DNA of 47,546 bases from assembly GCA_947258555.1 (NCBI GenBank), contig CAMYJF010000016.1, positions 1 to 47,546 on the forward strand, read 5' to 3'. Position 1 is the first letter of the stretch; each line of letters opens with the position of its first letter. The notes under the pieces were generated by a model. The model made no database searches, was not told the origin of the DNA, and was given only the letters and a program-made list of their open reading frames with translations. This document shows, piece after piece, positions 29,996 through 32,030 of this stretch. The stretch is from an uncultured Eudoraea sp. (lineage in GTDB: Bacteria > Bacteroidota > Bacteroidia > Flavobacteriales > Flavobacteriaceae). The position numbers were made by a program, and so were the translations under genes.

Positions 29996-30343
29996 CTACA
30001 CTATGACTACTTTAAAGCCACTTCTTCTTTTCTTGTAATACACACCCCTGTATTTATAGTATCGCTTTCCTCGTACATATACGATCTTGTGTCCGCGTGG
30101 AAGTACATTGATACGTAATCCTACCGGAGCCGAGCATACCACATATTTTCTTCCAAAAGGCTTATACCAAACGCCGGCAGCAAATCTGTATTTAACACCG
30201 TGGAACTTATAGATCTTAGGTTTATGGACTGTGGTTACCACAGTTCCACGTTTTGGGTAGACTTTTACAACCCGTTGCGCTTCTGCGCTATTAAAGGCGC
30301 CTATCATAAGGGCCATCACTAAAAGTATTTTCAAGGTTTTCAT
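29996..30343 (-). CDS. Secreted DUF6515-type protein
   Basis: The 115-residue product has a signal peptide (MKTLKILLVMALMIGAFNSAEA) and a small Tyr/Lys/Arg-rich mature part with KIYKFHGVKYRFAAGVWYKP, VVCSAPVGLRINVLPRGHKI and the repeated YVRGKRYYKYRGVYYKK. This matches the DUF6515 pattern (YYxxxGVYY repeats around a PPVG..V..LP block). It is a short exported beta protein of unknown function in Bacteroidota. Its promoter region carries the same TTAAACCAT-N14-GTCTTA motif found before the nearby sigma-factor and anti-sigma genes, so it is probably a member of that ECF regulon. The start is an ATG next to the signal peptide. Confidence 0.82.
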   Translation of the reverse strand: MKTLKILLVMALMIGAFNSAEAQRVVKVYPKRGTVVTTVHKPKIYKFHGVKYRFAAGVWYKPFGRKYVVCSAPVGLRINVLPRGHKIVYVRGKRYYKYRGVYYKKRRSGFKVVIV

Positions 30344-30370: not shown

Positions 30371-30399
30371 TAAGACTGTAGGTTTAAACTATGGTTTAA
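30371..30399 (-). promoter_or_regulatory. Predicted ECF-sigma promoter of the DUF6515 gene
   Basis: TTAAACCAT, 14 bases, then GTCTTA, on the minus strand. The sequence and the spacing equal those at 32002-32030. The AAACC to GTC distance is 16 bases, the usual gap between -35 and -10 elements of ECF sigma promoters. The gene starts 28 bases downstream. Confidence 0.68.
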
Positions 30400-30400
30400 T

Positions 30401-30426
30401 AAAAAAGGAAGCCGTTTGGCTTCCTT
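30401..30426 (-). terminator. Terminator after the sigma / anti-sigma / Spy-like operon
   Basis: On the minus strand AAGGAAGCC and GGCTTCCTT pair with a four-base loop and are followed by TTTT. It is 24 bases after the stop of the gene at 30451 and directly before the DUF6515 promoter. Confidence 0.88.
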
Positions 30427-30450
30427 ATAGGTTTTTCATCGAAAACTGCT

Positions 30451-30900
30451 TCATCCGCCTTTTCGTCGTTTTTGGATCTCTTTCAGCAATCTCTTTTTGA
30501 AATCTTCTTCGGCCCGGATCAACTTAAAACTTTTCTTTGCACCGAGCACTTCGCTCATACGTTCCATATAGGCAATATGCAGCCGGTGTTTTTCGGCTTC
30601 CAGATCTAGTAATTTATCAAGCAGTCTCGAAGCTTCACCTTCTGTGAGGTATTCGAAATCCTGCAATTTGCTAAGTATATCAACGCGTTCTTTGCGTTTG
30701 ATCGCTTCAATGTTTCCTTCATGTTCATTGTAAAGGGGCCAGAATACTTGTGCTTCTTCACTGGTCAAATTCAAACGTTCGGTGATAAAGGCCACTTTAA
30801 GCGATTTAATTCGCTCACGGCCCGGTCTGTTTTGCGAAAAAGCAAACGTACCCACCAGCATGAACAGTACCAATACCCCAATTTTGACTCTATTCTTCAT
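30451..30900 (-). CDS. Periplasmic Spy/CpxP-like protein linked to the ECF sigma factor
   Basis: The 149-residue product has a signal peptide (MKNRVKIGVLVLFMLVGTFAFSQ). An all-helical, highly charged mature part follows (RIKSLKVAFITERLNLTSEEAQVFWPLYNEHE, LLDKLLDLEAEKHRLHIAYMERMSEVLG, basic tail KRLLKEIQKRRKGG). LNLTSEEAQxFWP is the signature of the Bacteroidota proteins named 'sensor of ECF-type sigma factor', distant relatives of Spy/CpxP stress sensors. Its start overlaps the end of the anti-sigma gene (two adjacent ATG codons, 30903 and 30900), so it is translationally coupled to it. It likely acts as the periplasmic arm of the system (inference). A terminator follows. Confidence 0.8.
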   Translation of the reverse strand: MKNRVKIGVLVLFMLVGTFAFSQNRPGRERIKSLKVAFITERLNLTSEEAQVFWPLYNEHEGNIEAIKRKERVDILSKLQDFEYLTEGEASRLLDKLLDLEAEKHRLHIAYMERMSEVLGAKKSFKLIRAEEDFKKRLLKEIQKRRKGG

Positions 30901-31405
30901 CATACTCCAAGTTTAATTCATCTAAATCATCTATGGTATCATCGAGATACTCCATTATATTTTCATCTTCGACATTCAATTCTATTATGGCATCTTCCTC
31001 CAAAACATCTTCAGGAATAAATTCTGCCAATTCATAGGAACTCAATCCTAATTCATCCTCATCTAAATAAGCCTCTATATCTGCACTCGCCAGAGTGTCA
31101 AAGCTAGCCTCCTCTGTTCCTTTCCACGGGATCAGGACGACAAGCAGGAAAATTGCAGCAATGGAAGCTGCTGCCACCCAGTATTGTTTATAGGAACGCA
31201 TTTGCACCACTTTGGTCTCCTTGGGTTCCATGCGTGACTTCAACTTTTCATTGAAAGACTCAAGATACCCTTCCGGCATGCTGAATCCTTCATTTTCAGG
31301 AACGGCCTGGGATTCCTCCCCAACCTTGTCCAGGATCCGGTCTGTGAGGGAATCAAAATACCCTTCCGGTGTTTTAAAGCCTTTATGTTTCTTCCAATCT
31401 TTCAT
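30890..31405 (-). CDS. Single-pass membrane protein, predicted anti-sigma factor
   Basis: The 171-residue protein has a cytoplasmic N-terminus, one transmembrane helix (about 75-94, YWVAAASIAAIFLLVVLIPW), and a very acidic periplasmic C-terminus rich in Asp and Glu. The N-terminal part contains an internal repeat, GFKTPEGYFDSL (9-20) and GFSMPEGYLESF (40-51). These look like short linear motifs able to contact the sigma factor. There is no zinc-binding HxxxCxxC motif. Its place directly after the ECF sigma gene and its topology support an anti-sigma role, by inference only. It has its own copy of the ECF promoter motif, overlapping the sigma stop codon. Confidence 0.75.
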   Translation of the reverse strand: MKDWKKHKGFKTPEGYFDSLTDRILDKVGEESQAVPENEGFSMPEGYLESFNEKLKSRMEPKETKVVQMRSYKQYWVAAASIAAIFLLVVLIPWKGTEEASFDTLASADIEAYLDEDELGLSSYELAEFIPEDVLEEDAIIELNVEDENIMEYLDDTIDDLDELNLEYDEE

Positions 31406-31414
31406 GTCCTAGGT

Positions 31415-31443
31415 ATAGACGTCTTTTTTGTCTAATGGTTTAA
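31415..31443 (-). promoter_or_regulatory. Predicted ECF-sigma promoter before the anti-sigma gene
   Basis: TTAAACCAT, 14 bases, GTCTAT on the minus strand. The TAA of TTAAACC is also the stop codon of the sigma gene. The anti-sigma ATG lies about 10 bases further on. The sequence is close to 32002-32030 over about 33 bases. Confidence 0.62.
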
Positions 31444-31982
31444 TTTTCTTTCAAATAGCTTTCAATCTTTTTGACTGCATGGTGGTAGGAAGCTTTGAGT
31501 CCGCCTACCGAGGTTTCCAGAATTTCTGAAATTTCTTCATATTTCAGTTCTTCAAAGTATTTCATATTGAAGACCAGTTTCTGTTTTTCAGGCAATTTAG
31601 CAATGGCTTGTTGTAGCTTGTATTGGATCTCATCGCCTTCAAAATATACATCTGCCTGTAAATTGTTTGCCATTCGCTCCTGCAAGGCCTCTGAATTTAC
31701 GCCTAACTTTTTTGATTTCTGTTTTATAAAGGTGAGGGATTCATTCGTTGCAATACGGTACATCCAGGAATATAATTTGCTGTCGCCCTTGAACCCGTCA
31801 ATACTTCTAAATACCTTAATGAACGTATTTTGCAAGACATCGTCTGCATCGTCATGATCCAGTACGATCCTACGGATATGCCAGTACAATCGCTCCTTAT
31901 AGGTGTTGATCAACATCTCGAACGCCTTTGACTGGGTATCTTTTTGCTTTAGTTGCTTAACTAACGTTTCTTCGGCTATCAA
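31440..31982 (-). CDS. RNA polymerase sigma factor, ECF family
   Basis: The 180-residue sigma factor has region 2 at about 22-92 (YKERLYWHIRRIVLDHDDADDVLQNTFIKVFRSI, then LYSWMYRIATNESLTFIKQ) and region 4 at about 122-175 (AIAKLPEKQKLVFNMKYFEELKYEEISEILETSVGGLKASYHHAVKKI). Region 3 is absent, as in all ECF members. The frame starts with TTG at 31982, matching the usual MIAEETL family start; no ATG is available. It is the first of three coupled genes with the anti-sigma and Spy-like genes. The ECF-type promoter motif at 32002-32030 suggests it activates itself. Confidence 0.92.
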   Translation of the reverse strand: MIAEETLVKQLKQKDTQSKAFEMLINTYKERLYWHIRRIVLDHDDADDVLQNTFIKVFRSIDGFKGDSKLYSWMYRIATNESLTFIKQKSKKLGVNSEALQERMANNLQADVYFEGDEIQYKLQQAIAKLPEKQKLVFNMKYFEELKYEEISEILETSVGGLKASYHHAVKKIESYLKEN

Positions 31983-32001
31983 AGTCAGTTTGTTATAGGG
32001 G

Positions 32002-32030
32002 TAAGACCTCTCTTTTTTCCAATGGTTTAA
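32002..32030 (-). promoter_or_regulatory. Predicted autoregulated ECF-sigma promoter of the sigma gene
   Basis: TTAAACCAT, 14 bases, GTCTTA on the minus strand, ending 19 bases before the TTG start at 31982. The AAACC / GTC pair at 16-base spacing resembles ECF promoters (for example GGAAC..GTC). Two further copies lie at 31415 and 30371. Confidence 0.68.

What the first reader, a model, noticed from the sequence alone, without database searches (positions are those of the whole stretch)
30371..32030. Three equally spaced copies of an ECF-type promoter motif define a predicted regulon
Seen: TTAAACCAT-N14-GTCTTA at 32002-32030 (before the sigma gene), TTAAACCAT-N14-GTCTAT at 31415-31443 (before the anti-sigma gene) and TTAAACCAT-N14-GTCTTA at 30371-30399 (before the DUF6515 gene), all on the minus strand, each ending about 10-28 bases before a start codon. 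Known: ECF sigma factors recognise an AAC-containing -35 and a GTC-type -10 element about 16 bases apart, often at their own promoter. Inferred: the sigma factor activates itself, its anti-sigma gene separately, and the DUF6515 gene.
Basis: partly seen in the sequence, partly recalled or inferred. Interest (0 to 1): 0.75.

Follow-up and report, generated by a model that had tools for sequence, protein, structure and literature searches.

The report
Flavobacterial envelope-stress sigma factor regulon
Three identical switch sites mark a stress-response control unit, a sigma factor with its likely membrane-anchored brake, that recurs across most sampled genera of a large bacterial family and probably turns on genes that protect the cell envelope.

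Summary
The three sites are real, exact and unique: TTAAACCAT-N14-GTCT occurs three times in the 2.73-Mb genome, all here; the backwards control has none. They belong to a conserved, autoregulated ECF unit: sigma gene, single-pass membrane protein (putative anti-sigma), Spy/CnrX-like periplasmic protein. With one mismatch allowed, TTAAACC-N16-GTC precedes the sigma gene in 30 of 30 loci examined, the anti-sigma gene in 23 of 30, an adjacent DUF6515 gene in 14 of 14 and the Spy-like gene in 0 of 30; the control hits 1 of 104 windows. In 199 family genomes the refined motif gives 410 hits against 17 control hits, in 150 of 173 genomes with the sigma gene and 3 of 26 without. Among 76 ORFs behind sites other than those of the sigma and anti-sigma genes, 60 pass a crude signal-peptide rule and 58 fall in eight recurring families, such as Spy-like, DUF6515 and DUF1800. 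The putative anti-sigma matches no Pfam or NCBIfam family; its cytoplasmic part is built of 1 to 7 PxxYF repeats. Not shown: binding, transcript starts, signal. Closest studied system: CirY/CirZ/spy of Phocaeicola vulgatus.

The parts
32002..32030 (-). ECF-type promoter of the sigma gene (TTAAACCAT-N14-GTCTTA)
   Evidence: at the orthologous place in 30 of 30 loci with at most one mismatch, N16 between TTAAACC and GTC in 30 of 30
31440..31982 (-). ECF sigma factor gene (TTG start; regions 2 and 4)
   Evidence: Pfam Sigma70_r2 4.9e-14, Sigma70_r4_2 3.9e-15; orthologue in 173 of 199 family genomes at E<=1e-40; start codon TTG in 28 of 30
31415..31443 (-). second, internal ECF-type promoter, before the anti-sigma gene, overlapping the sigma stop codon
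   Evidence: at the orthologous place in 23 of 30 loci, median 8 nt from the ATG in those 23
30890..31405 (-). putative anti-sigma factor: two cytoplasmic PxxYF repeats (about residues 9-28 and 40-58), one membrane helix (about 76-94), acidic outer tail
   Evidence: no Pfam or NCBIfam family up to E=1; repeats; N-in single-pass pattern in 30 of 30 orthologues by a hydropathy and charge rule; sigma gene directly upstream in 30 of 30 loci of the first set and 30 of 30 of the second; four genomes are in both sets
30451..30903 (-). secreted CnrX/Spy-like helical protein, overlapping the anti-sigma gene (likely sensor or co-chaperone); no site of its own
   Evidence: Pfam Metal_resist only at E=0.061, below cut-off; model pLDDT 73.9; Foldseek's top seven matches are STV and CnrX but with E 0.07-0.8, best VIA match NccX Z 7.5; 0 of 30 with a site
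30405..30426 (-). terminator-like hairpin between the sigma operon and the DUF6515 unit
   Evidence: fold -14.3 kcal/mol, z -4.46
30371..30399 (-). ECF-type promoter of the DUF6515 gene
   Evidence: 14 of 14 adjacent DUF6515 orthologues have a site with at most one mismatch
29996..30343 (-). secreted, strongly basic DUF6515 protein, predicted regulon member
   Evidence: Pfam DUF6515 1.4e-16; other DUF6515-like genes away from the operon also follow the motif

Best explanation
The sites are promoters read by RNA polymerase carrying the sigma factor encoded at 31440-31982. At rest the sigma factor is held at the inner membrane by the protein encoded next to it (30890-31405), whose cytoplasmic PxxYF repeats bind it; the Spy/CnrX-like periplasmic protein (30451-30903) senses or buffers envelope damage and controls that brake. 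On envelope stress the sigma factor is freed and transcribes (1) its own operon, (2) the anti-sigma and sensor genes again from the internal promoter, so that the brake is made in excess and the response shuts off, and (3) further genes for exported proteins: Spy-like chaperones, DUF6515 proteins, a lipoprotein. Shown by sequence: sites, spacing, conservation, gene order, predicted topology, repeats, co-occurrence of motif and sigma gene, the kind of genes behind the motif. Inferred: that this sigma factor reads the motif, that the membrane protein is its anti-sigma, the inducing signal, and the feedback role of the second promoter.
For: Three exact genome-unique sites. With up to one mismatch: sigma 30/30, anti-sigma 23/30, adjacent DUF6515 14/14, Spy-like 0/30, backwards control 1/104 windows. 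Spacing N16 in 30/30 sigma upstream regions, any other spacing from 10 to 23 in 0 or 1. 410 hits against 17 backwards-control hits in 199 genomes; 150 of 173 genomes with the sigma gene have a site, 3 of 26 without (sigma presence). Of 76 ORFs behind sites other than those of the sigma and anti-sigma genes, 58 fall in eight recurring families and 60 pass a crude signal-peptide rule; under one rule for both sides, 39 of 49 ATG ORFs of 150 aa or more against 10 of 23 background ORFs (p 0.003). Own genome: of 29 hits of the looser pattern 5 are non-coding with an ATG ORF within 120 nt (two of these 5 are the DUF6515 and anti-sigma sites themselves), control 0 of the 30 examined of 40. The sites before a lipoprotein, a Spy-like gene and a third small exported protein are kept in the sister species G106. 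Repeat protein directly behind a sigma gene and followed by a P0003-like gene in 30 of 30 loci, 9 of them outside the family. Single-pass N-in pattern 30/30.
Against: No transcript starts, binding or mutant data. The genome probably holds other ECF sigma genes (22 first-look candidates, not examined), which could share the motif. Three genomes without a detected sigma orthologue still have sites (G016, G058, G158; 80-91% complete), and 23 of 173 with it have no exact hit of the strict pattern. The anti-sigma site is missing in 7 of 30 loci at one mismatch. In the second set 7 of 30 sigma genes and 2 of 30 anti-sigma genes have no site even with [AG]TC, and in several loci of another family the -10 reads ATC. 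14 of 91 sites examined lie in open frames of 300 nt or more and may be chance. The L040 site fails the non-coding rule and has a mismatch; the lipoprotein site is identical in the sister species, spacer included, and so says less. The anti-sigma model is of low confidence (pLDDT 47.6). CnrX/Spy matches are to a common helical fold, with Foldseek E 0.07 or worse and unrelated proteins at similar Z.
Confidence: 0.85

Rival explanations
1. The sites are ECF promoters, but shared by several ECF sigma factors of the cell, so the 'regulon' is a mixture and this sigma factor is only one reader.
For: The F. psychrophilum study counts seven ECF sigma factors and suggests overlapping regulons (PMC9723704, passages read). 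Three genomes without a detected sigma gene have sites.
Against: The motif sits at this sigma gene in 30 of 30 loci, and 23 of 26 genomes without it lack the motif, including two rated 100% complete, of 3.5 and 4.4 Mb (G076, G143). The ECF motif SM6 of F. psychrophilum has a CGT box and other targets.
Confidence: 0.15
2. The protein at 30890-31405 is not an anti-sigma factor but an accessory or target membrane protein, and the Spy-like protein or another factor restrains the sigma factor.
For: No similarity to a known anti-sigma domain found in Pfam, NCBIfam or PDB sequences; low-confidence model.
Against: Linked to the sigma gene in every one of 56 genomes examined in two sets of 30 (four shared), 9 of them outside the family; N-in single-pass pattern; in P. 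vulgatus the gene in the same position (cirZ) behaves as the anti-sigma of its sigma factor (PMC13114119, passages read), although homology of CirZ was not tested.
Confidence: 0.12
3. The three sites are a repeated element or transcription-factor operator, not promoters.
For: The three -35 nonamers are identical, as in a repeat.
Against: Two short blocks at a fixed N16 distance are conserved while the spacer beyond a T-rich start is free; the operon sites lie on the coding strand, 2 to 31 nt before the start codon in 64 of 67; the 'AAC ... GTC' layout is that recalled for ECF promoters; sigma-70-type boxes are near shuffled expectation here, 8 against 5.8 +/- 2.6.
Confidence: 0.03

Closest known systems
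CirY/CirZ/spy of Phocaeicola vulgatus (PMC13114119, 2026; passages read)
   Same: ECF sigma, anti-sigma and spy in one operon in Bacteroidota; cirY, spy and two downstream genes rise most when the anti-sigma gene is deleted
   Different: No promoter motif in the passages read; the regulon described there is mainly the locus and two downstream genes; whether CirZ carries PxxYF repeats could not be tested (sequence not at hand)
CnrH/CnrY/CnrX of Cupriavidus metallidurans
   Same: Sigma factor, membrane anti-sigma, periplasmic CnrX sensor (layout partly recalled); CnrY binds its sigma factor by two helices (PMC7406223, passages read); the P0003 model has CnrX and NccX among its best matches
   Different: Metal sensing not indicated here; no CnrY among the PDB profile matches of P0002; repeat number varies from 1 to 7
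SM6 ECF motif of Flavobacterium psychrophilum (PMC9723704, abstract and passages read)
   Same: ECF-type promoter class in Flavobacteriaceae, including an ECF/anti-sigma pair among its genes
   Different: CGT box in the -10 region and type IX secretion genes; the TTAAACC motif and this regulon are not mentioned in the passages read (its supplement was not readable)
RpoE/RseA and Cpx-Spy envelope responses of Escherichia coli (recalled; Spy control also)
   Same: Envelope stress logic; Spy-type chaperones among targets; autoregulated sigma with membrane anti-sigma
   Different: Different anti-sigma domain and promoter sequence; Spy there is under two-component control

Membership tests
ECF sigma factor with autoregulated promoter | Sigma-70 regions 2 and 4, no region 3 | tested here: met
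   Pfam Sigma70_r2 and Sigma70_r4_2 above cut-off, no region 3 match; TIGR02937 sigma70-ECF 103.1 bits, cut-off 42.9
ECF sigma factor with autoregulated promoter | Motif with fixed -35/-10 spacing at its own gene, conserved in orthologues | tested here: met
   30 of 30 loci, N16 in 30 of 30; in a second, wider set 23 of 30
ECF sigma factor with autoregulated promoter | Transcription from these sites depends on this sigma factor | not testable with these tools
   needs transcript mapping and a deletion
Class I anti-sigma of the zinc type | Hx3Cx2C signature (definition as in PMC7406223) or a library match to such a domain | tested here: not met
   no Pfam or NCBIfam match; none of 30 aligned N-terminal parts holds a cysteine
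Class I anti-sigma without zinc (RseA-like) | Four-helix ASDI domain | tested here: inconclusive
   no library match, but the model is too poor to judge the fold
CnrY-type (class II) anti-sigma | Short cytoplasmic part with two helices binding sigma4 and sigma2, then a membrane helix | tested here: inconclusive
   one membrane helix in 30 of 30; helices at 16-32 and 47-59 only in a model of pLDDT 47.6; no sequence match; members of genus g127 have one repeat, others up to seven
CnrX/Spy/CpxP periplasmic superfamily (P0003) | Secreted helical hook fold with LTxxQ-like motifs (recalled) | tested here: inconclusive
   all-helical model pLDDT 73.9; top seven Foldseek matches STV and CnrX, prob 0.89-1.00 but E 0.07-0.8; NccX Z 7.5 beside unrelated proteins at Z 7; Pfam below cut-off; PDB profile search without a relative
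CirY/CirZ/spy system | Gene order sigma, membrane regulator, Spy-like protein in Bacteroidota | tested here: met
   30 of 30 and 30 of 30 loci of two sets sharing four genomes; the identity of the second and third gene is inferred
CirY/CirZ/spy system | Homology of the anti-sigma factors | not tested

The most novel reading that the evidence does not exclude
The PxxYF repeat is a new anti-sigma domain of Bacteroidia, made of a short helix-forming unit repeated one to seven times, that restrains a conserved envelope-stress sigma factor; it would fill part of the reported gap in which only 6% of Bacteroidetes ECF sigma factors have a class I anti-sigma neighbour (PMC7406223), and repeat number would set how tightly the sigma factor is held.
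Probability: 0.5. Interest if true: 0.75.

Novelty: new variant of a known kind. Interest (0 to 1): 0.6.

Why it matters
If true, most sampled genera of this family share one envelope-stress sigma factor whose promoter code can be read straight from the DNA, so that targets can be listed in any of their genomes. It gives roles to test for DUF6515, DUF1800, GLPGLI (Pfam Porph_ging) and an unnamed lipoprotein family, and offers a candidate for the missing anti-sigma factors of Bacteroidota.

Tried and rejected
Equal spacing of the copies along the DNA: rejected (587 and 1044 bases). Sigma-70-type promoters as an alternative: 8 found, 5.8 +/- 2.6 expected. Chance: rejected by shuffles and backwards controls. 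Known anti-sigma family for P0002: no Pfam, NCBIfam or convincing PDB match. PDB profile search of the P0003 family: two chance-like matches only. AlphaFold model of P0002: too poor to use. Hits L064 and L096 lie in long open frames without a downstream ORF and L145 has no downstream ORF; they are among the 91 sites examined but have no target; L093 duplicates L063. Of the 29 own-genome hits of the looser pattern, 13 were looked at one by one: L035, L041, L048, L050, L053, L054, L055 and L060 overlap ORFs and were dropped, L038 has no ORF close downstream; L039 precedes a 56-residue membrane ORF, and none of the G106 sites I looked at has a counterpart. Papers: ten searches showed no paper on this motif or regulon, but one search matched 1,311 papers of which 20 were listed and none opened, so absence from print is not established. 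PMC12596196 (Bacteroides thetaiotaomicron regulons; passages read) has no 'AAAC' or 'Spy' in its main text. The main ECF classification paper (NAR 2021) is not held, so an entry for this group there cannot be excluded.
Full report
OBSERVATION. The genes, all on the minus strand, are an ECF sigma factor (31440-31982, TTG start), a protein without any Pfam or NCBIfam family (30890-31405), a secreted helical protein (30451-30903) and a DUF6515 protein (29996-30343). A terminator-like hairpin at 30405-30426 separates DUF6515 from the operon. The copies are not equally spaced along the DNA (587 and 1044 bases).

CONSERVATION AT THE LOCUS. P0002 has a relative in 161 of 199 family genomes at E<=1e-5. 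DNA was held for the best 30, the window's genome included. In all 30, sigma, P0002 and P0003 relatives lie in this order; 14 also have the DUF6515 gene within the stretch held. Trying every spacing from 10 to 23 (-35 with up to one mismatch, exact GTC), 16 is found in 30 of 30 sigma upstream regions, 22 of 30 for P0002 and 12 of 14 for DUF6515, all other spacings in 0 or 1. The consensus of 67 operon sites is aTTAAACC(T/A)TT-N13-GTC(A/T)(A/T)A.

GENOME SCALE. The refined pattern TTAAACCWTT-N13-GTCWWA was searched in 199 family genomes. Summed, it gives 410 hits against 17 for the backwards pattern; 153 of 199 genomes have a hit and 16 a control hit. A sigma orthologue at E<=1e-40 is present in 173 of 199. 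Of these 150 have a site; of the 26 without it 3 have a site, all in assemblies 80-91% complete.

REGULON. I examined 90 loci behind: 30 returned with the search and 60 picked by hand from the listed sites away from the operon, not all of those listed, and the listing itself was cut. They hold 91 sites (14 of them in open frames of 300 nt or more) and 87 distinct downstream ORFs; 11 are the operon's own sigma or P0002 genes. Of the other 76, 58 fall in eight families, clustered by BLAST: Spy-like 16, DUF1800 10, DUF6515 9 (one of them, in G150, lies beside the operon), an unnamed Cys-lipoprotein family 9, beta-lactamase-family lipoproteins 5, GLPGLI 4, EF-hand 3, CarboxypepD-type 2; 18 are single. 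Names come from Pfam scans of one representative each (LTXXQ, DUF1800, DUF6515, Beta-lactamase, Porph_ging, EF-hand; no family for the lipoproteins); 'GLPGLI' and 'CarboxypepD' are mine. By a crude rule 60 of 76 have a signal peptide; with one rule for both sides, 39 of 49 ATG ORFs of 150 aa or more against 10 of 23 other such ORFs in the same loci (p 0.003). In the window's own genome the looser pattern gives 29 hits, the backwards pattern 40; 5 of the 29 are non-coding with an ATG ORF within 120 nt (the DUF6515 and anti-sigma sites among them; the sigma gene, with its TTG start, is not counted), none of the 30 control hits with DNA held are. The sister species G106 keeps the sites before the lipoprotein (96.8% identical protein; site identical, spacer included), the Spy-like gene (78%; LTXXQ below Pfam's cut-off; changed spacer but kept boxes, with TTAAACT) and the small exported protein of L040 (76%; first base of the motif differs).

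THE PUTATIVE BRAKE. P0002 relatives all have one membrane helix with a positive-inside signal (N-terminus in the cytoplasm) and a tail of net charge -18 to -30 outside (30 of 30). The N-terminal part is two copies of a unit FKxPxxYFxxF...L; P13, Y16 and P44 are invariant. A profile of it hits 54 of 247 genomes of the phylum: 27 of the family, 24 of other families of the class, 3 of the rest of the phylum. In the 30 loci with DNA, 9 of them outside the family, a sigma gene lies 11-65 nt upstream and a P0003-like gene downstream on the same strand in 30 of 30; four of these genomes were in the first set, so 56 genomes were seen in all. The other 18 outside-family genomes with a profile match were not examined for neighbours. 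The number of PxxY[FL] units is 1 in the eight members of genus g127, usually 2, and up to 7. Sites in this set, allowing [AG]TC: sigma 23 of 30, P0002 28 of 30. P0003's model (pLDDT 73.9) matches STV and CnrX first, with Spy and ZraP lower, and NccX, CnrX, ZraP and CpxP in the second look; unrelated helical proteins score similarly there, so this is a lead rather than proof.

HOW IT MOST LIKELY WORKS. The layout is that of CnrH/CnrY/CnrX: sigma factor, membrane anti-sigma, periplasmic sensor. Sequence supports each part's place and topology; binding and signal are inferred. Two details suggest tuned stoichiometry: the sigma gene starts with TTG in 28 of 30, while the anti-sigma gene has a second promoter whose -10 ends a median 8 nt before the ATG (23 sites), so its mRNA should be nearly leaderless. 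A transcript from the internal promoter adds brake and sensor but no sigma factor, a built-in off switch.

AGAINST WHAT IS KNOWN. The closest studied operon is CirY/CirZ/spy of P. vulgatus, where deleting cirZ raises cirY and spy (PMC13114119, passages read). Only 6% of Bacteroidetes ECFs neighbour a class I anti-sigma (PMC7406223, passages read). The F. psychrophilum start-site study reports among its six motifs one ascribed to ECF factors, SM6, with a CGT box and type IX secretion genes, and says that further ECF-controlled starts may remain to be found (PMC9723704, abstract and passages read). None of the papers opened mentions the TTAAACC motif, the repeat or this regulon in the passages I saw; the ten searches and their limits are in Tried and rejected. 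So the kind is known (autoregulated ECF/anti-sigma/sensor), while the promoter code, the repeat-built brake and the regulon appear undescribed in what I could read.

Noticed in passing
window 31980-31982 and L004-L033: The sigma gene's start codon is TTG in 28 of 30 orthologues, mostly with no in-frame ATG nearby; a conserved weak start.
   Followed up: partly
window 31405-31420: The -10 box of the internal promoter ends a median 8 nt before the anti-sigma ATG (23 sites): probably a nearly leaderless mRNA.
   Followed up: partly
G000:C3:40982 (L034), G000:C9:62284 (L046), G000:C2:54171 (L040): Further predicted targets in this genome, outside the window: a Cys-lipoprotein, a Spy-like protein and a small exported protein in front of an ORF that looks like a CarboxypepD_reg/TonB-linked outer-membrane protein; sites kept in sister species G106.
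   Followed up: yes
L163, L165, L166, L168, L169, L172: In another family of the class the -10 before the anti-sigma gene reads ATC rather than GTC and the repeat number is 3 to 7; a chance to look for matching changes in sigma region 2.
   Followed up: no
window 29996-30343: DUF6515 proteins are strongly basic (net charge after residue 22 +19 to +26 in 14 of 14), while the anti-sigma's outer tail is strongly acidic (-18 to -31).
   Followed up: no
G117:C18:65406-65948: One otherwise well conserved sigma orthologue is listed with an in-frame TAG in the matched stretch.
   Followed up: no
L111, L138 and eight other loci: Ten ORFs clustering with a DUF1800 protein, each in a different genome, follow the motif, which suggests an envelope-stress role for this uncharacterised family.
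   Followed up: no
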